From contig JAKQKE010000114.1 of assembly GCA_029560805.1 (NCBI GenBank), positions 20,667-84,666 on the forward strand: a DNA stretch of 64,000 nucleotides, in the 5' to 3' direction. The stretch's first letter is position 1. Each line of letters begins with the position of its first letter. Source of the DNA: Spirochaetota bacterium (GTDB lineage Bacteria > Spirochaetota > Spirochaetia > Treponematales > UBA12059). The translations under genes were made by a program, and so were the position numbers. The notes below the pieces were generated by a model, which saw only the letters and a list, made by a program, of their open reading frames with translations, searched no databases and had not been told where the DNA came from. Positions 2,429 through 58,817 of this stretch are shown in pieces.

Positions 2429-4249
2429 ATGAAGAAGAAACAGGCTCTGGCGATAGCCGTATTCGCGCTGTTCGCGATCGGCCAGGCATGGTCCCAGCGG
2501 AAGTCCGCCGATTATTACGAGATGTACGCGGGCGAGGTAACGACCCTCAACTACCTGATCTCGGGCTCGGAAAACGAGCATATCATGTTCGCCAACGTCA
2601 TCGACAACCTGATCGAGTACGACCGGTACGGCGTCGTGCAGCCGGGCCTCGCCGAATCGTGGACGACCTCGCCCGACGGACTCGTCTGGACCTTCAAGCT
2701 CAGGAAGAACCTACGCTGGTACACCTGGCAGGGCAAGGAATACGGCGACGTGACGGCCCAGGACTGGGTCGACGCGGCCAAATACATCCTGACCAAGGCG
2801 AACGCCTCGCGCATCGTCGAGCCGCTATCCTCAGTCGTCAAGAACGCCGACGCCTACTACGAGGGCAAGCTATCGGACTTCGCGCAGGTCGGCGTACGGG
2901 CGCTCGACAAGGGCACGCTCGAGTATACCCTCGAGAAGCCGGTACCGTACTTCCTGTCGATGCTCAGCTACGTCACCTACCTACCGGTCAGCGGCAAGTT
3001 CCTGGCAGAGGCTGGCGCCGCCTTCGGCAGGGACCAGACGAGGATCCTATACAACGGCGCCTACATCATGACCGAGTTCGAGCCCCAGGTGACGAGGGTG
3101 CTGACCAAGAACAAGAAGTACTGGGACCAGAAGAACGTCCATATCGGGCGCCTGATCTATCGCTACAATAAGGAATACGCGACTCTGGCCCCCGAGCTGT
3201 TCCTGCGCGGGCAGACCTCGTACGCGGCCATCCCGTCGACCATCCTGGACACCTGGATGAAGGACCCGGCGAAGAAGGCCCAGATACACCCGGCTCGGAC
3301 CAGCTCCTACACCTACTTCTACGGCTTCAACTTCAAGCCGACCTTCGCCGCCGAGTACGAGCCGGACAACTGGAAGGTCGCCGTCAACAACAAGAATTTC
3401 CGCAAGGCGGTCTTTCACGCGTTCGACCGCAAGGCCGCGATGCTAACCGCCGAGCCGTACGCGCCGAGCCGCAGGCTCCAGTCGACCGTGACGCCGCGCG
3501 GCTTCGTGAGCGCCGGCGGGCTCGACTACGTCGCCACCGGATCCCTGCTGGCCATCGCCAACGGCGACTCGTTCGACAAGGCCAAGGCGCTCCAGTACAA
3601 GGCCGCCGCGATGGCTGAGCTGGCCGGCAAGGCCACGTTCCCGGTCAAGGTGATGATGCCGTACAACTCCAGCGGCTCCGAGTGGACGAACCGCGTCCAG
3701 GTCGTCGAGCAGCAGCTCGAGGCCCTGCTCGGTAAGGACTTCATCGACGTGATACCGGTGTCATTCCCGCCGACGGGCTTCCTCAACGCGACTAGGCGCT
3801 CCGGCAACTACGCGATGCAGGAGCTCAACTGGGGCCCGGACTACGCCGATCCGCAGACCTACACCGACCCCTTCGTCTCCGGCGCCAACTACATCTTCAT
3901 CGATAGCTCGCCCGTCTACGCCAAGGGCGACGGCTCGACCGCCTACGACGAACTCGTGCGGGCCGCGATGGCCGAGACTGGCGACCTCAAGAAGCGCTAC
4001 GAGCTATTCGCCAAGGCCGAGGCCTTCCTGATCGAGGAAGCGATGATCATACCGTACGCAATGGGCGGCGGCGGCTTCGAAGCGTCCAAGCTCGAGCCCT
4101 TCACCTGCCCCTACGCGCCGTTCGGCATGTCCAACCTGAAGTTCAAGGGACAGATCGTGCTGGACAAGGCTCTCGACACCGAGGCCTATGAGCGGCTCGA
4201 GGCCCAGTGGAAGAAGGAGCGCGAGGCGGCGCTCAAAAAAGCGCGATAG
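2429..4249 (+). CDS. oppA: Peptide ABC transporter substrate-binding protein (SBP family 5)
   Basis: 606 residues. Extracytoplasmic binding protein that delivers peptides to the OppBC channel. A signal peptide is plain: MKKK, a hydrophobic core, and AWSQ before the mature start near residue 23; no lipobox cysteine is seen. The body is SBP_bac_5: N-terminal LNYLISGSENEHIMFANVID, GLAESWTTSPDGLVWTFKLR near 75-95, and the C-terminal lobe with YADPQTY. A good ribosome site (AAGGA) precedes the ATG by a suitable distance. It is transcribed divergently from oppBCD. The stop codon TAG lies at the first base of a 113-bp tandem hairpin repeat. Ligand unknown. Confidence 0.93.
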   Translation: MKKKQALAIAVFALFAIGQAWSQRKSADYYEMYAGEVTTLNYLISGSENEHIMFANVIDNLIEYDRYGVVQPGLAESWTTSPDGLVWTFKLRKNLRWYTWQGKEYGDVTAQDWVDAAKYILTKANASRIVEPLSSVVKNADAYYEGKLSDFAQVGVRALDKGTLEYTLEKPVPYFLSMLSYVTYLPVSGKFLAEAGAAFGRDQTRILYNGAYIMTEFEPQVTRVLTKNKKYWDQKNVHIGRLIYRYNKEYATLAPELFLRGQTSYAAIPSTILDTWMKDPAKKAQIHPARTSSYTYFYGFNFKPTFAAEYEPDNWKVAVNNKNFRKAVFHAFDRKAAMLTAEPYAPSRRLQSTVTPRGFVSAGGLDYVATGSLLAIANGDSFDKAKALQYKAAAMAELAGKATFPVKVMMPYNSSGSEWTNRVQVVEQQLEALLGKDFIDVIPVSFPPTGFLNATRRSGNYAMQELNWGPDYADPQTYTDPFVSGANYIFIDSSPVYAKGDGSTAYDELVRAAMAETGDLKKRYELFAKAEAFLIEEAMIIPYAMGGGGFEASKLEPFTCPYAPFGMSNLKFKGQIVLDKALDTEAYERLEAQWKKEREAALKKAR

Positions 4250-4538
4250 CGGACCTTCGGCCGCTATCGCGTAGGGTAAGACCGTATCGCCGACGTAGCG
4301 CGGCGATACGGCAGCCGTTGTTCAAGCGGTCGAGCTAGCGCTCGCCGCTTAACAGCATGGAGCGGACCTTCGGCCGCTATCGCGTAGGGTAAGACCGTAT
4401 CGCCGACGTAGCGCGGCGATACGGCAGCCGTTGTTCAAGCGGTCGAGCTAGCGCTCGCCGCTTAACGGCATGGAGCGGACCTTCGGCCGCTATCGCGTAG
4501 GGTAAGACCGTATCGCCGACGTAGCGCGGCGATACGGG
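4248..4538. repeat. Tandem 113-bp hairpin repeat, 2.6 copies, between convergent gene ends
   Basis: Copies begin at 4248, 4361 and 4474, each starting AGCGGACCTTCGG; the third stops after about 65 bases. Full copies are nearly identical (one A/G change seen, in AACAGCATGG versus AACGGCATGG). Each unit folds into three stem-loops: AGCGG/CCGCT, a 10-bp stem CCGTATCGCC/GGCGATACGG, and AAGCGG/CCGCTT with an inner CGAG/CTCG. The array fills the gap between the end of the binding-protein gene and the end of the acetyltransferase gene, so it may end transcription from both sides or protect mRNA ends. No T-tracts follow the stems. Confidence 0.95.
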
Positions 4539-21845: not shown

Positions 21846-22583
21846 ATGATCGAGACGAGACGCTTCGACGACGAGGCGGCCTGGATAGGCGCCGTCCTGG
21901 CCGACGCGGCCGGGGCCGTACAGGAGGCCGAGGCCGAGGGGCGGCGGGCCGTCCTATGCCTGGCCGGCGGCCGGACGCCGGAGCCGGCCTATCGCGCCGT
22001 CGCCGCGTGGCTGGCCGCCAGGGCGCGCGGCCCCGGCCGTCCCGCGCGGCCCGTCCTGCTCGTGCCCGGAGACGAGCGGCTCGAGCCACGCGGGCCCTCC
22101 GACCTGAACGACACGATGCTCAGGCGCGCCTTCGCCCCGGCCCTGGACTTAGGCGCGGCCGAGCTGGCCGCCTGGAACGTCTCCGCCGGGGAGCGCGCCG
22201 CCGTCGCGGCGATGGCCGCCCTCGTCGCGTCCATCGCCTCCGGCATGCCGTCGGCCGCGCCGCTCTTCGACCGCTGCTACCTGGGCCTCGGCGCCGACGG
22301 CCACGTCGCCGGCGTCTTCCCCGGCAGCCCGGCCGCCCGTCGGGCCGGTTCCCGTTCCGCGCCCATAGCCGTCGCCGGTACGGCGCCCGAGGAGCCGCGC
22401 GCCCGCGTCAGCCTGTCCCTCCCGACCCTCGCCTCGACCCGAGGCACGCGCTTCATCGTCCGCGCCGCCGGCAAGGAGGACGCGCTCCGCCGCCTGGCCT
22501 CCGGCGACCCGGCCTGCCCGGCGGTCGCCGCCGCGGCCGAAGGCGCTCTGGCGTTCGTGCTCGCCCGACAGGCGCGGCCATAA
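21846..22583 (+). CDS. pgl: 6-phosphogluconolactonase
   Basis: 245 residues. Hydrolyses 6-phosphoglucono-lactone in the oxidative pentose phosphate path. Typical family blocks: VLCLAGGRTPEPAYRAVAA (SGG-T-P motif), PVLLVPGDERLEPRGPSDLN (the W-x-x-x-D-E-R block), DRCYLGLGADGHVAGVFPGS (GxGxDGHxASLFPG), and RARVSLSLPTLASTRGTRF followed by GKEDALRR. Length is normal. The ATG at 21846 was preferred to one 12 codons upstream because the promoter lies between them. The gene stands alone; no zwf or gnd is in the window. Confidence 0.9.
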   Translation: MIETRRFDDEAAWIGAVLADAAGAVQEAEAEGRRAVLCLAGGRTPEPAYRAVAAWLAARARGPGRPARPVLLVPGDERLEPRGPSDLNDTMLRRAFAPALDLGAAELAAWNVSAGERAAVAAMAALVASIASGMPSAAPLFDRCYLGLGADGHVAGVFPGSPAARRAGSRSAPIAVAGTAPEEPRARVSLSLPTLASTRGTRFIVRAAGKEDALRRLASGDPACPAVAAAAEGALAFVLARQARP

Positions 22584-22617
22584 TCGGCTTCACGCCACTC
22601 CCTATCAGAACTTTCCC

Positions 22618-22645
22618 TTGACGAATCCCTGATCCGGCCTACACT
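22618..22645 (+). promoter_or_regulatory. Promoter candidate upstream of the 21-bp array
   Basis: TTGACG (22618-22623), 16 bases, TACACT (22640-22645), with an ATG six bases later at 22652. The frame from that ATG runs through the repeats and then overlaps the next gene out of frame, so it is probably not coding in full. The promoter may serve the gene at 23097 through a leader of about 450 bases. Confidence 0.45.
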
Positions 22646-22791
22646 GAGCCCATGGCTTCCAGCCGCCACGGGCGAACGGAAGCATCCACATCGGGAGCCT
22701 GCAGCAATTCGCCGTGTCGAACCCGCGCTGACCGGAGGCTCCTAATCATAGCAAGCGACGCCTGCCCCCTGATTCCATCCGACCATGACGG

Positions 22792-23001
22792 ATCGATCAT
22801 GGAACATCGCCCATCGATCCCGGAACATCGCCCATCGATCGCCGAATATCACTCTTCGATCGCCGAATATCGCTCATCGATCGCCGAATATCGCTCATCG
22901 ATCCCTGAACATGGCTCATCGATCCCGGAAGATCGCCCATCGATCTCGGAAGATCGCCCATTGATCGCCGAATATCGCTCATCGATCGCCGAATATCGCT
23001 C
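22792..23001. repeat. Ten tandem 21-bp repeats, iteron-like
   Basis: Ten consecutive 21-bp units, 22792 to 23001, consensus ATCGATCGCCGAATATCGCTC with two variant classes (CGCCGAATATCGCTC and CCCGGAACATCGCCC-like). Exactly 21 bp is two helical turns, so each unit faces the same side of the DNA. All frames stay largely open because the unit is a multiple of three; the plus frame reads heptads such as SIAEYRS. Unit-to-unit changes are not concentrated at third positions of any one frame, which argues against selection on a peptide. It sits 95 bases upstream of the 23097 gene. Confidence 0.9.
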
Positions 23002-23096
23002 CCCGGCCAGGCAAGGCCGCTTCCATGTCCGGCTACACGGCTCCCGAGTACAAAAAGCCGTCATTGGCGGCACCAATACACGTTTGGAGGTGGGCG

Positions 23097-23789
23097 ATGG
23101 CCACATCGATTCATGCCAGGTTCCTTCAGGACGCCAGGACTCTCCTGGAACAGGCATCGGGGCTACCGGAGCTGGCCTCGGAGCTGAAGGAGTACGGCTA
23201 CACGCCGGGCAAGTTCCAGGAAGGGTTCAAGCTGCTCGAAGAAGCCGAGGTTCTGTCCAGGCGCAAGGCGGTCGAGTACGGCGAGAAGTACGAGAGCAGC
23301 GCCAAGCTCGTCAAGGCCTGGAAGGGCGCCAACGTCCTGTACCAGAAGGCCCTGAAGGTGGCCCGCGTGGCCCTGCGCGACGCCCCCAAGAGCACCGAGG
23401 CTCTCGGTCTGGGCGGCCCGCGCAACCTGAGCGTCTCCGGGTGGTACGAGCAGGCCGGCGACTTCTACGCGAACCTGTTGGCCAACGACGGCTACGTACG
23501 AGCCCTGGGCGCCTTCGGCTATTCCCGCGAGCGCCTCGTCGAGGAACGGCGGGTTATCGAGGCCGTCATGGATACGAGGGACGAGACGGCTATCGAGGCC
23601 GCCCAAGCCAAGGCGGTTACCGCCGCCCGCGACCGGAAGCTCAAGGAACTGGACGACTGGGTCTCCGACCTCCGCGCGATCTGCGAGGTGGCCTTCTACG
23701 AGAAGCGCGACGAGCTACCGAAGCTCGGCCCCCTCGCGCCGACCGTACGCAGGCATAGCGGCGGCAAGAAGAAGGTCAAGGCGGCGTAG
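23097..23789 (+). CDS. Conserved-looking helical protein of unknown function
   Basis: 230 residues, not recognised. No signal peptide or membrane helix. Nearly all helical by eye: LLEQASGLPELASELKEYGY, KFQEGFKLLEEAEVLSRRKA, KALKVARVALRDAPKSTEAL, then a long charged helix (about 165-210) ending LDDWVSDLRAICEVAFYEKR, and a basic tail GGKKKVKAA that could touch nucleic acid. The ATG at 23097 has GGAGGTG at ideal distance; the frame opens at 23025 with no such site. A 21-bp repeat array lies directly upstream and a large hairpin cluster directly downstream. GC hairpin at 23801-23828 may end the transcript. Confidence 0.75.
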   Translation: MATSIHARFLQDARTLLEQASGLPELASELKEYGYTPGKFQEGFKLLEEAEVLSRRKAVEYGEKYESSAKLVKAWKGANVLYQKALKVARVALRDAPKSTEALGLGGPRNLSVSGWYEQAGDFYANLLANDGYVRALGAFGYSRERLVEERRVIEAVMDTRDETAIEAAQAKAVTAARDRKLKELDDWVSDLRAICEVAFYEKRDELPKLGPLAPTVRRHSGGKKKVKAA

Positions 23790-23800
23790 GGACGAGCAGC

Positions 23801-24152
23801 GCCCCGATCCGGTTCAACGGATCGGGGCTTCCCTTCGGGGGCGACGAAGGAGACGCCCCGCGCTTACCCGTAACGGGTTTTCGTCCATACCGGGGATGGA
23901 CGCGAGAAACGAGGCCCCCGGGCCACGACGGCGTGCTCTCTGCACGTCGAGGGGCCCGGGTGGTTCCCTTCGGGGGCGACGAAGTAGACGCCCCGGTATG
24001 TCTCACTCTACTCGGGTTTTCGCGCGTAGCGAGGATGTATACGAGAAGCGCCCCGATCCGGGCCTCGACGGCGTGCTCCTTGCACGTCGAGAGGAACGGA
24101 TCGGGGCTTCCCTTCGGGGGCGACGAAGTAGACGCCTCGCTACGCGCGAAAA
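23801..24152. repeat. Three hairpin modules with a constant tail, between convergent gene ends
   Basis: A constant block TTCCCTTCGGGGGCGACGAA recurs at 23829, 23964 and 24108. Each is preceded by a different GC hairpin: 23801-23828 (11-bp stem GCCCCGATCCG, 6-base loop); GGCCCCCGGGCC-type stem around 23920-23962; and again GCCCCGATCCG with a 40-base insert (24050-24107). Inserts contain an inner hairpin CGACGGCGTGC/GCACGTCG in modules two and three. A perfect 18-bp inverted repeat (24017-24034 and 24135-24152) brackets module three and ends exactly at the stop codon of the RecA-like gene. A further hairpin GTCCAT/ATGGAC lies near 23883-23901. Confidence 0.9.
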
Positions 24153-24857
24153 CTAGGCTTCGGCGATCAGGAGAGTCTTCGAGTCAAGCTTTATGTTCAG
24201 GTCCTCGGGGTTCATGCGCCCGTGGTCCTTAACGACGATGAAGTGGATGTACTCGGCCTTGGGCTCGAGGATGATCAGCACGGTGATGCTGTCGAGGAAG
24301 GGCCTGAGGATCACCGGTACGTTCTTCTTGTCCAGGAGCGGCTCCTCGCCGGACATGGTGCAGGAGTACCAGAACTCGAGCTTCATCTCCTCGGCGAAGG
24401 CGCGGACCTTGGAGAAGTGCTCGGCGTCGGCGCGGGCGAAGTCGAAGCCGTCGGCGATGATGGCGTCGGCGTCGAAGCCGCCGTCGACGATCATCGCGCG
24501 GAGCGACTTGAGGATCTGGTCGGTGGTCACGCCCTCCTGGTTGAAGTTCATGATCACGCGGTTCTTCATCAGGTCGTCGTGGACGCTCGAGTGGTCCTCG
24601 AGGTTGCGCTTCTTGGCGAGCTCGGTGAAGATATTCTCGTACCACGAGATGACGTAGCTCGTGTGGGTGGTGAAGGAGACGTGGATGACTTTCTTGCCCT
24701 GCATGAGCTTGTCGAGGGCCAGCTGGACCAGCACGCTCGTCTTGCCTATGCCCTTGCGGCTCGCGATGACGCCGATATTACCAGCCTTGAGGCCGCCCTC
24801 GATGCCCCGCTCGAGGACGCGAACGGGACTCTTCTTGATCAGCTCCTCTTTCAGCAT
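24153..24857 (-). CDS. RecA/KaiC-like P-loop ATPase of unknown role
   Basis: 234 residues. Single RecA-fold domain: a lead-in ERGIEGGLKAGNIGVIASRK, Walker A SRKGIGKTS (33-41), then LVQLALDKLMQGKKVIHVSF as in KaiC/RadA-type proteins, and a Walker B-like ADAIIADGFDF near 130. The C-terminal part is beta-rich (DSITVLIILEPKAEYIHFIV). No zinc finger or Lon-like domain, so it is not RadA, and no second domain as in KaiC. AAGGAG lies five bases before the ATG. It follows EF-G on the same strand but a terminator separates them. Partner unknown. Confidence 0.8.
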   Translation of the reverse strand: MLKEELIKKSPVRVLERGIEGGLKAGNIGVIASRKGIGKTSVLVQLALDKLMQGKKVIHVSFTTHTSYVISWYENIFTELAKKRNLEDHSSVHDDLMKNRVIMNFNQEGVTTDQILKSLRAMIVDGGFDADAIIADGFDFARADAEHFSKVRAFAEEMKLEFWYSCTMSGEEPLLDKKNVPVILRPFLDSITVLIILEPKAEYIHFIVVKDHGRMNPEDLNIKLDSKTLLIAEA

Positions 24858-31101: not shown

Positions 31102-31112
31102 CCTATCCGGCC

Positions 31113-31356
31113 GCCGCCACGCACCGAACGTGAAGTGGCGGCGCGCCAGGGATGGCGCGGGCCGCTTTCAGCGGCCACGACCATCATTTCCTATCGGAAT
31201 CCGGGCATGCACCGCATGCCCGGATGGCGCGCCCAAGGGCGGCCCGTCCGCAGGACGGGAACGTCACGGATGACGACGCGCCAGGGTTGGCGCGCCCAAG
31301 GGCGGCCCGTCCGCAGGACGGGAACGTCATGGATGACGATACGTCATGGATGACGA
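31113..31356. repeat. Composite hairpin repeat cluster, family shared with 58.7 kb
   Basis: Stem-loops in order: GCCGCCAC/GTGGCGGC (31113-31142), GCGCC/GGCGC, GGCCGCT/AGCGGCC (about 31160-31176), CGGGCATGC/GCATGCCCG (31203-31223), then two 63-bp units whose core is GGCCCGTCCGCAGGACGGGA followed by ACGTCAYGGATGACGA. Core CCCGTCCGCAGGACGGG begins at 31243 and 31306. The first unit has CACGG, the second CATGG, and an extra ACGTCATGGATGACGA follows. The same order recurs at 58.7 kb. The cluster lies between tnaA and the adenosine deaminase gene, both on the plus strand. No T-tract, so its role in termination is uncertain. Confidence 0.92.
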
Positions 31357-42807: not shown

Positions 42808-44448
42808 CTACCCCAGGAACGGATAGCGCCAGTCGACCGATGGCGCGAAATTCTCCTTTATCGTGCGCGGGCTCGTCCACCGGACCAGGTTCAGGAACGA
42901 GCCGGCCTTGTCGTTCGTTCCGGAGCCACGGGCGCCTCCGAAGGGCTGCCTACCGACGACCGCGCCCGTGGGCTTGTCGTTGATGTAGAAGTTGCCGGCG
43001 GCGTGCCTGAGCGCGCGCGTCGCTTCCATGATGGCGTGCCTATCCGAGGCGAACACCGCGCCGGTCAGCGCGTAGGGCGAGGTCGTATCGACTAGCTCGT
43101 ACGCGGCGGCCATGTCGGAGTCGTCGTAGGCGTACGCGGTCAGCACCGGCCCGAATACCTCGTTGGCCATCGTCTCGGAGCGCGGGTCGTCGCTGACGAT
43201 CAGAGTCGGATCGATGAAGAAGCCCTGGCTCTTGTCGTAGCCGCCGCCCGCGGCTATACGGCAGGCGGGATTGGCCTTGGCGCGGTCGATGAAACCGGCG
43301 ATCGTATCGAAGGCCGCCTCGTCGATCACGGCGTTGACGAAGTTCGCGTGGTCGGTCGGCGGGCCGACGCGTAGCGAGGCGATCTCCGCCGCCAGCCGTT
43401 CGATAAAGCGCCCGGCTATCGAGCGGGGCAGGTAGAGCCGCGAGGCCGCTGAGCACTTCTGGCCCTGGTACTCGAAGGCTCCCCGAACGCAGGCCGTGAC
43501 GGCCGCGTCGAGGTCGGCGTCGGGATGAACGAAGATGAAATCCTTGCCGCCGGTCTCGCCGACCAGGCGCGGGTACGAGGCGTAGATGGATAGGTTGTCG
43601 GCGATGCCTTTCCAGAGGCTGTTGAACACGGCCGTGGAGCCGGTAAAGTGAAGCCCCGCCAGGCCCGGCCTTGACAGCACCCCGGCGCTGATCGCCCTGG
43701 CCGAGCCCGGCAGAAAGTTGATCACGCCGTCGGGCAGCCCGGCCGCCTTGTACAGGCGCAGGAGTTGCCAATTGGACAGCACCGAGCTCGAGGCCGGCTT
43801 CCAGACCACGGTATTGCCCATCAGGGCCGGCGCCGACGGGAGGTTCGCGGCGATGGCCGTGAAGTTGAACGGCGTGACGGCGTAGACGAAGCCGTCCAGC
43901 GGCCGGTAGTCGCTCAGGTTGCGTTCGCCCGGACCGGAGCGCGGCTGCTCGGCGTAGAGCCGCTCGGCCAGGGCCGGGTTGATACGGAAGAAGTCGGCGG
44001 TCTCGCAGGTCGAGTCAATCTCAGCTTGGTAGGCGTTCTTGGACTGGCCAAGCATCGTCGACGCGTTGAGCGCCTTCCACCAGCCGGCGGAGATCAGGTC
44101 GGCAGCCTTGCGGAATACCGCCGCCCGCTCCTGGAACGGCGTCTCGGACCACTCCCGGTAGGCCACGGCGGCGGCCTCGGCCGCCGCGATCGCCTCGGCC
44201 TCGCCGGCCTCGTGGTAGCGGCCGAGTACGAGCGAGCGGTCGTGCGGCGCCCGGATCTCCTTGATCCGCCCCGTGCGGACTTCCTTGCCGCCGATGACGA
44301 GGGGAATCTCGATAGGATTCGCGGCCATGGCCTTGAGCTCGGTGTCGATGGCCGAGCGCTCGAGGGAACCGGGAGCGTACGAACGCACCGGCTCGTTGGG
44401 AGGCAAGCCCGGGGAGGGCTCGCTTCCGTACATAAGAGAATCGTACAT
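42808..44448 (-). CDS. pruA: 1-pyrroline-5-carboxylate dehydrogenase
   Basis: 546 residues. NAD-dependent aldehyde dehydrogenase that oxidises glutamate semialdehyde to glutamate, second step of proline (and ornithine) breakdown. Blocks: IEIPLVIGGKEVRTGRIKEI, YAVTPFNFTAIAANLPSAPA, RLVGETGGKDFIFVHPDADL (catalytic Glu), FEYQGQKCSAASRLYLPRSI (catalytic Cys), and the C-terminal GAVVGRQPFGGARGSGTNDK. Length matches the stand-alone P5CDH type (about 540) found in eukaryotes and some bacteria. The ATG at 44448 is six bases after AAGGAG. No proline dehydrogenase gene lies nearby. Confidence 0.93.
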   Translation of the reverse strand: MYDSLMYGSEPSPGLPPNEPVRSYAPGSLERSAIDTELKAMAANPIEIPLVIGGKEVRTGRIKEIRAPHDRSLVLGRYHEAGEAEAIAAAEAAAVAYREWSETPFQERAAVFRKAADLISAGWWKALNASTMLGQSKNAYQAEIDSTCETADFFRINPALAERLYAEQPRSGPGERNLSDYRPLDGFVYAVTPFNFTAIAANLPSAPALMGNTVVWKPASSSVLSNWQLLRLYKAAGLPDGVINFLPGSARAISAGVLSRPGLAGLHFTGSTAVFNSLWKGIADNLSIYASYPRLVGETGGKDFIFVHPDADLDAAVTACVRGAFEYQGQKCSAASRLYLPRSIAGRFIERLAAEIASLRVGPPTDHANFVNAVIDEAAFDTIAGFIDRAKANPACRIAAGGGYDKSQGFFIDPTLIVSDDPRSETMANEVFGPVLTAYAYDDSDMAAAYELVDTTSPYALTGAVFASDRHAIMEATRALRHAAGNFYINDKPTGAVVGRQPFGGARGSGTNDKAGSFLNLVRWTSPRTIKENFAPSVDWRYPFLG

Positions 44449-44784
44449 GCCATACTCCTTTCCAAATAGCGGGAGGTCGATCCCTTTCGGACTCGGCCCG
44501 TCGGCTCCGGGCCGTGGCGCGGGCGGCTTGCCCGGCTGTAGGCTATCGGAGCTCGAAGCATGGTTCTGTAAAAGACCTTCAGCGCTCGCCGTGGCGATAA
44601 TCGCCATCGGGCTGCCATGTCTGGCCGCGGCGCCCCCGCCGACGGCGGGGCGGTTCGATGCGGTACGTCGGCCATACCGACGAGCCAGCTTCGTATACCG
44701 ACTGATATATCAATATACTGCTTATTGATCAGAGCGCCTAGCGGAGCCGTACGAACCGGCAAGCGCCGCAACTCCCGGCGAGCG
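44449..44784. other. Gene-free region upstream of pruA
   Basis: About 335 bases with no credible gene. It holds an AT-rich patch at 44690-44735 with the palindrome TGATATATCA and overlapping TATATTGATATATC on the minus strand, plausible as a regulated promoter, but no clean -35/-10 pair at 17 bases is seen. The part nearest pruA is GC-rich. Confidence 0.5.
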
Positions 44785-58672: not shown

Positions 58673-58817
58673 CGCCAGGGATGGCGCGCCACAACCCGGC
58701 CCGTCCGCAGGACGGGAACGTCACGGATGACGATGCCGCGCACGGATGCGCGGCCACAACCCGGCCCGTCCGCAGGACGGGAACGTCATGGATGACGAAA
58801 CGTCATGGATGACGAAA
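58673..58817. repeat. Composite hairpin repeat cluster, second locus of the 31.2 kb family
   Basis: GCGCC-AGGGAT-GGCGC, then two 65-bp units with core CCCGTCCGCAGGACGGG at 58700 and 58765, each followed by ACGTCAYGGATGACGA. As at 31.2 kb, the first unit has CACGG, the second CATGG, and an extra ACGTCATGGATGACGA closes the array. The spacer differs (CACAAC here, CAAGGG there). The final hairpin supplies the last codons and stop of the methyltransferase gene (58803-58805). Confidence 0.92.

What the first reader, a model, noticed from the sequence alone, without database searches (positions are those of the whole stretch)
22792..23001. Ten 21-bp repeats in exact helical phase upstream of an unknown gene
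21 bp is two DNA turns; ten copies would present identical faces to a bound protein, as in iteron arrays or multi-site operators. Two sequence classes alternate in blocks (CGCCGAATAT and CCCGGAAxAT types). The downstream gene codes for a basic-tailed helical protein, and a promoter with a leaderless-type ATG lies just upstream of the array. The array could be an autoregulatory site, a partition or replication element, or a leader RNA.
Basis: inference. Interest (0 to 1): 0.6.

Follow-up and report, generated by a model that had tools for sequence, protein, structure and literature searches.

The report
Helically spaced repeats beside PQLLE genes
A row of ten 21-letter DNA repeats in front of an uncharacterised spirochaete gene is one case of an apparently undescribed pairing, found in three bacterial phyla, in which genes of one protein family of unknown function carry their own repeat array whose spacing (about 10.5 letters, one DNA turn, times 2, 4, 6 or 8) is kept while the letters change almost completely.

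Summary
The array is real: ten indel-free 21-bp units at 22792-23001. The gene at 23097-23789 belongs to NCBIfam NF052641.1, the "PQLLE family", a duplicated all-helical protein of unknown function.

Relatives turn this into a general finding. Of 40 PQLLE genes with readable upstream DNA in Spirochaetota, Bacteroidota and Cyanobacteria, 29 have a tandem array within 600-700 bp upstream. Every one has a period of 21, 41-43, 63 or 83-85 bp. Only 13 of 2,819 background windows do. Three of four newly fetched cyanobacterial genes confirmed the prediction.

Unit sequences of proteins under 50% identical are no more alike than shuffled units, yet array similarity tracks protein similarity (Mantel r 0.44, p 0.0005). 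Period is conserved and sequence drifts. A second helical family carries the same kind of array downstream.

Coding, RNA-structure, CRISPR, REP/RAYT, type III toxin-antitoxin and origin readings fail tests. A near-identical genome lacks the module at this locus.

Best explanation: a helically phased, multi-site DNA target read by the linked protein or a similar factor (autoregulatory or nucleoprotein). Binding is inferred, not shown. I found no literature report; only an open-licence library was searched.

The parts
22618..22645 (+). sigma-70-like promoter TTGACG-16-TACACT upstream of the array; would place the array in a long 5' leader
   Evidence: 1 found, 0.2 expected in shuffles; consensus match only
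22792..23001 (.). array of ten 21-bp units, consensus ATCGATCGCCGAATATCGCTC, no indels, two unit types in blocks
23057..23071 (+). leader hairpin GCCGTC-ATT-GGCGGC between array and gene; similar 6-bp-stem, 3-nt-loop dyads with different stem letters occur upstream of L019, L020, L024, L025 and L026
   Evidence: sequence inspection and single-sequence folds; only seen in this genus
23086..23091 (+). Shine-Dalgarno-like GGAGGT
   Evidence: sequence
23097..23789 (+). PQLLE-family gene (230 aa): two related halves, each helix / short helix / ~55-residue helix, basic tail
   Evidence: NF052641.1 173 bits, cut-off 80; AF2 pLDDT 82; halves aligned by hhalign, probability 98.7%, E 1.4e-15; no Pfam, PADLOC or PHROGs family

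Best explanation
The array and the gene form one heritable module: a PQLLE-family gene plus a private tandem array whose unit length is a whole number of double turns of DNA (21, 42, 63 or 84 bp, give or take one). SHOWN: the linkage, the conserved period, the free drift of the unit sequence, co-inheritance of array and gene, and absence of the module at this locus in a close relative. INFERRED: the array works as DNA. Its copies put identical sites on one face of the helix, so copies of a cognate protein bind side by side and cooperatively. The internally duplicated PQLLE protein is the most likely reader. Lying between a promoter-like site and the start codon in the window, the array would let the protein set its own expression, and/or build a nucleoprotein filament that is the functional end in itself. 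Phase is kept because cooperative binding needs it. Sequence can drift because array and reader change together.
For: (1) Upstream arrays with z >= 7 at 29 of 40 PQLLE genes, all at period 21/41-43/63/83-85: Spirochaetota 10/12, Cyclobacteriaceae genome G419 12/18, other Bacteroidota 3/4, Cyanobacteria 4/6. Background 13/2,819. Downstream of the same genes: none with such a period. (2) The cyanobacterial result was a prediction tested on fresh loci: 3 of 4. (3) Units of proteins <50% identical resemble each other no more than shuffled units, but unit similarity rises with protein similarity (Mantel r 0.44, p 0.0005). (4) 41, 43, 62, 83 and 85 bp are not multiples of 3, which fits helix turns, not codons. 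(5) Bacteroidota 42-bp units often contain palindromes, with excess fold energy on both strands alike, as expected of DNA dyads. (6) Internal duplication of the protein. (7) In near-identical genome G003 (93% DNA identity across the right flank) another gene sits between pgl and the kaiC-like gene, with no array and no PQLLE gene there. (8) A second helical family has 10.5n arrays downstream in 8 of 10 measured loci.
Against: No binding has been shown, and no DNA-binding fold is recognised in the model. In the second family the array lies downstream, so a simple operator is not the common denominator. 11 of 40 PQLLE genes have no clear array. Orphan arrays without the gene exist (C304 in this genome; C13:174760 in G419). 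The shared unit motif (CGGGAA-like) is weak: information 10.05 against 8.65 +/- 0.27 in shuffles, but only about 2 sd above partly reversed units, and with no orientation preference.
Confidence: 0.45

Rival explanations
1. The arrays are phased DNA sites for a third-party factor (a nucleoid protein or regulator) that controls or silences accessory genes; PQLLE and the second family are only frequent clients.
For: Two families without detectable homology (hhalign 1.6%) carry the same kind of array, upstream in one and downstream in the other; arrays also lie beside an HU-DNA_bdg/DUF4469 gene, upstream of a type III methyltransferase-like gene and upstream of an SNase-like gene.
Against: Different arrays in one genome share no sequence, so one sequence-specific factor cannot read them all; only a phase- or shape-specific one could. 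Array similarity tracks PQLLE similarity.
Confidence: 0.2
2. Repeat-seeding element, working like REP/RAYT: array units copy themselves to new places, and the protein helps or hitch-hikes.
For: Orphan arrays related to gene-linked ones in the same genome: C304 against the window (74%), C197 and C219 against C262 (76-82%), G419 C13:174760 sharing the unit of second-family loci. 22 PQLLE matches in G419.
Against: The protein has no transposase or nuclease signature; C197 is cut by its contig end and C219 lies near one, so they may not be true orphans; a pure parasite would not need a fixed helical period.
Confidence: 0.14
3. Transcribed leader or repeat RNA bound by the protein, as in type III toxin-antitoxin systems.
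For: Array upstream of the gene behind a promoter-like site; locus-specific units; leader hairpin with differing stems in one genus.
Against: No excess RNA structure in nine of the ten 21-bp PQLLE arrays tested and less than expected in the tenth; no terminator-like site between array and gene; no ToxN-like or other nuclease family; the second family's arrays lie downstream; RNA needs no 10.5-bp phase.
Confidence: 0.11
4. Neutral minisatellites that gather beside accessory genes.
For: Tandem repeats of 7, 14, 15, 23 and 36 bp also occur in these genomes.
Against: Those other periods are never the best array upstream of the 29 genes; 29/40 against 0.46% background; side of the gene is family-specific.
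Confidence: 0.06
5. Coding repeat: a heptapeptide tail or small protein.
For: 21 = 7 codons; several frames are open; single frames in C304, C197 and one second-family array show synonymous excess.
Against: No frame is consistent across arrays; the best window frame (p 0.035 of six tests) is interrupted by TGA inside the array; periods 41, 43, 62, 83 and 85 shift the frame.
Confidence: 0.03

Closest known systems
NCBIfam NF052641.1 PQLLE family protein
   Same: The window protein and its relatives score far above the family cut-off.
   Different: The family entry names a sequence motif only; no paper in the library mentions it and I found no record of the linked array.
Type III toxin-antitoxin loci (ToxIN, CptIN)
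   Same: Tandem array of locus-specific repeats just upstream of a gene (general knowledge; the abstract of PMC8860590, describes the antitoxin as multiple RNA repeats).
   Different: All-helical protein without a toxin family match, no terminator-like site, no RNA structure, strict DNA-turn period.
Iteron arrays and partition sites (Rep/iterons, ParR/parC)
   Same: Direct repeats spaced by whole DNA turns beside the gene of a presumed binder (general knowledge).
   Different: No Rep, ParR or ParM relative found; up to 22 family matches per genome; no origin signature.
REP elements with RAYT
   Same: Gene plus repeat family with orphan copies.
   Different: No Y1 transposase in PQLLE; contiguous 21/42-bp tandem units, not dispersed palindromes. 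A RAYT-like gene with its palindromes sits near one PQLLE gene in G419.
Intergenic TAACTGA heptamer repeats (PMC4679880)
   Same: Direct repeats upstream of genes, also in Cyanobacteria and Bacteroidetes.
   Different: 7-bp fixed sequence upstream of functionally unrelated genes, not gene-private 21/42-bp arrays.

Membership tests
PQLLE family (NF052641.1) | score over curated cut-off of 80 bits | tested here: met
   173.2 bits for the window protein
Iteron-controlled replication origin | Rep initiator gene beside the iterons | tested here: not met
   no Pfam family for the 23097 product, only chance-level matches at E up to 10
Iteron-controlled replication origin | origin signature (skew switch) | tested here: not met
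   flat GC skew over the window
Type III toxin-antitoxin | repeat array upstream of the gene | tested here: met
Type III toxin-antitoxin | ToxN-like endoribonuclease | tested here: not met
   no such family in Pfam, NCBIfam or PADLOC scans; all-helical model
Type III toxin-antitoxin | terminator between array and toxin gene | tested here: not met
   0 terminator-like sites in 22300-24160
Type III toxin-antitoxin | structured repeat RNA | tested here: not met
   window z -0.12 sense, 0.44 antisense against unit-permuted arrays
CRISPR array | repeats separated by unique spacers | tested here: not met
   units are contiguous, lag-21 identity 0.87 over the whole unit
REP/RAYT | Y1 tyrosine transposase | tested here: not met
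   no Pfam match
ParR/parC partition site | ParM/ParR genes adjacent | tested here: inconclusive
   Pfam was run on the PQLLE product, pgl, the Lar_N gene, the kaiC-like gene and fusA, none ParM/ParR; other neighbours were not scanned
Coding heptad repeat | one frame with synonymous bias and no stops | tested here: not met
Cognate DNA-binding array (autoregulatory) | protein binds its own array | not testable with these tools
   needs gel shift or ChIP

The most novel reading that the evidence does not exclude
A so far undescribed class of two-part genetic element in at least three phyla: small helical proteins (the PQLLE family and a second, unrelated-looking family) each paired with a private DNA array kept in register with the double helix but free in sequence, so that each protein-array pair is a self-addressing nucleoprotein system, inherited and moved as a unit.
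Probability: 0.4. Interest if true: 0.85.

Novelty: categorically new. Interest (0 to 1): 0.68.

Why it matters
Conserved period with unconserved sequence is a rare footprint: selection appears to act on DNA geometry, not on letters. It gives a functional handle on a protein family known only by a motif name, makes a concrete and cheap test possible (does each protein bind its own array, and does phase matter), and would explain a sizeable share of the non-coding tandem repeats in these genomes. In 510 kb sampled from one Bacteroidota genome, 12 of 16 such arrays sit beside the two families (the sampling was chosen partly around them).

Tried and rejected
Coding repeat. RNA element: Rfam has nothing at the array, and unit-permuted controls show no structure in the 21-bp PQLLE arrays. 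Known defence, phage or plasmid gene: PADLOC, PHROGs, IMG/VR, PLSDB and INPHARED searches empty (a 15-bit Cas12c hit to one distant relative is judged chance). Fold relatives: Foldseek against PDB (both families) and BFVD (PQLLE) gives nothing at E <= 0.001. Direct DNA search of the array in 59 relatives found only the own genome, which misleads because only the period is conserved. Shared unit motif CGGGAA: significant against shuffles but weak against stricter controls, so not claimed. TRF alone under-reports diverged arrays (L160, L223-L227), hence the lag-identity statistic. Conserved gene neighbours: none beyond the array in the spirochaete loci listed.

Full report
WHAT IS THERE. The window lies in a 3.3-Mb draft genome (G000, contig C175) whose closest named relatives are uncultured Spirochaetota MAGs such as HGW-Spirochaetae-3. 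At 22792-23001 there are ten contiguous 21-bp units without a single indel. A promoter-like TTGACG-16-TACACT lies at 22618-22645. A Shine-Dalgarno sequence and an ATG follow the array at 23086-23099. The gene runs to 23789. Upstream lies pgl (PF01182); downstream are a kaiC-like gene and fusA on the other strand ('kaiC-like' is my reading of the sequence, it has no Pfam hit).

THE PROTEIN. Pfam, PADLOC and PHROGs have no family for it. NCBIfam calls it a PQLLE family protein, NF052641.1, 173 bits against a cut-off of 80. That name describes a motif, not a function, and no paper in the library contains it. The two halves are related to each other (hhalign 98.7%, E 1.4e-15). The AF2 model (pLDDT 82, pTM 0.57) shows each half as a helix, a short helix and one helix of about 55 residues. 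Foldseek finds no relative at E <= 0.001.

THE KEY COMPARISON. A DNA search with the array finds only this genome. Searching instead for the protein and then looking at its upstream DNA shows arrays again and again, each with different letters. I measured this with a lag-identity z-score in the 600 bp upstream of 36 PQLLE genes. 26 reach z >= 7, and all 26 have their best lag at 21, 41-43, 63 or 83-85 bp. As a test of prediction I fetched PQLLE genes from the order of a cyanobacterium: 3 of 4 with readable upstream DNA again had 42-bp arrays with 21-bp substructure. In all, 29 of 40. The same statistic on 2,819 background windows of four of these genomes, excluding 1 kb around the two families, gives 13 (0.46%), and the background periods are mixed (9, 12, 14, 15, 23, 24, 36, 61 and so on). 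The binomial tail is about 4e-59; paralogues and shared ancestry make the true figure less extreme, but unrelated unit sequences and three phyla argue against one inherited accident. One positive (L155) lies beside a long open frame and may be a coding repeat.

PERIOD KEPT, SEQUENCE FREE. Among the sixteen 21-bp arrays, units of proteins more than 50% identical match at 11.0 of 21 positions after best rotation; below 50% they match at 9.3-9.6, the value for shuffled units (9.58). The correlation of unit and protein similarity is r 0.44, p 0.0005. So array and gene travel together, but the letters are forgotten while the spacing is not. 21, 42, 63 and 84 bp are 2, 4, 6 and 8 turns at 10.5 bp. 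41, 43, 62, 83 and 85 bp, also seen, are no codon multiples. In G419 some 42-bp units contain palindromes, visible as excess fold energy on both strands, which suits a two-fold symmetric protein on DNA. The 21-bp PQLLE arrays show none.

A SECOND FAMILY. One array without a PQLLE gene in HGW-Spirochaetae-3 lay beside another helical gene (C8:52242-52706). Its relatives (no Pfam or NCBIfam hit) carry 21-, 42- or 62-bp arrays downstream of the gene in 8 of 10 measured loci, and none upstream in those measured (two pairs of loci in G419 are near-duplicates or close relatives). It shows no detectable homology to PQLLE, though its model also has one 55-residue helix. Among 16 helical-period arrays found in 510 kb of G419, eight flank PQLLE genes and four flank this family (stretches were partly chosen around known genes).

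MOBILITY AND ORPHANS. The kaiC-like protein is 99% identical in G003 and the right flank 93% identical in DNA. There pgl and the kaiC-like gene enclose a membrane protein with a cyclic-nucleotide-binding-like domain (my reading) instead of the array and PQLLE gene; G002 and G004 have the same protein there. Arrays related to gene-linked ones occur without the gene: C304 in this genome, whose first unit supplies the end of an MFS gene, and C13:174760 in G419. Neighbouring genes of the spirochaete loci have nothing else in common that I could see.

ALTERNATIVES. Coding: no frame is consistently synonymous, and the best window frame has an in-array TGA. RNA: no structure beyond composition in the 21-bp PQLLE arrays and no terminator. 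CRISPR: no spacers. Origin: flat skew, no initiator. Neutral minisatellite: contradicted by period and side specificity.

MECHANISM. What is shown is a conserved, co-inherited pairing of gene and helically phased array. What is inferred is that the array is a row of same-face DNA sites for cooperative binding, most likely by the linked protein, with autoregulation or nucleoprotein assembly as the outcome. The chief doubt is the downstream position in the second family, which favours either a structural (filament) role or a third-party reader over a plain operator.

NOVELTY. I found no description in the searched library (open-licence papers only). Each known kind considered fails at least one tested defining feature or could not be tested, hence 'categorically new' as a pairing; if binding turns out to be plain autoregulation, 'new variant of a known kind' would be the fairer label.

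Noticed in passing
G000:C304:1297-1541 (L002): Orphan array related to the window's (74%) between convergent MFS and dehydrogenase genes; its first unit encodes the end of the MFS gene.
   Followed up: yes
L141, L144-L148, L150-L153: Second helical family (no Pfam/NCBIfam hit) with 21/42/62-bp arrays immediately downstream of the gene.
   Followed up: partly
L122 (G419:C7:23100-24415): A 22-bp array lies next to an HU-DNA_bdg/DUF4469 gene, possibly a third array-linked family.
   Followed up: no
L219:383-2807 (G000:C219): 21-bp array about 260 bp upstream of a type III restriction methyltransferase-like gene.
   Followed up: no
L220 (G003:C40): Broken 21-bp array at the contig end next to phospholipase-D-like and McrBC-like genes, a defence-island setting.
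   Followed up: no
window 23816-24140: Cluster of GC-rich repeats (46-nt direct copies and 17-19-nt inverted repeats) downstream of the PQLLE gene, also in G003; looks like a REP-type element.
   Followed up: partly
window 44440-44570: Molybdenum/tungsten cofactor (Moco) riboswitch, minus strand, over the Rfam gathering score.
   Followed up: no
window 4248-4537: 113-bp tandem repeat, 2.6 copies, 99% identical.
   Followed up: no
window 31324-31356 and 58782-58817: The same 17-bp palindromic unit (ACGTCATGGATGACGAT type) in tandem at two distant places.
   Followed up: no
window 31108-31202: ARAGORN tRNA-Phe of 95 nt that Rfam does not confirm; possibly a false call.
   Followed up: no
L052:4752-4779, L053:4753-4884: 7-bp tandem repeats (GTAATCA, ATCAGTA, ATCACAG) just downstream of two PQLLE genes.
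   Followed up: no
L132 (G419:C7:232947-233851): REP-associated transposase-like gene with its CTAGCACGCGTTGCAAACGCG palindromes beside a PQLLE gene.
   Followed up: no
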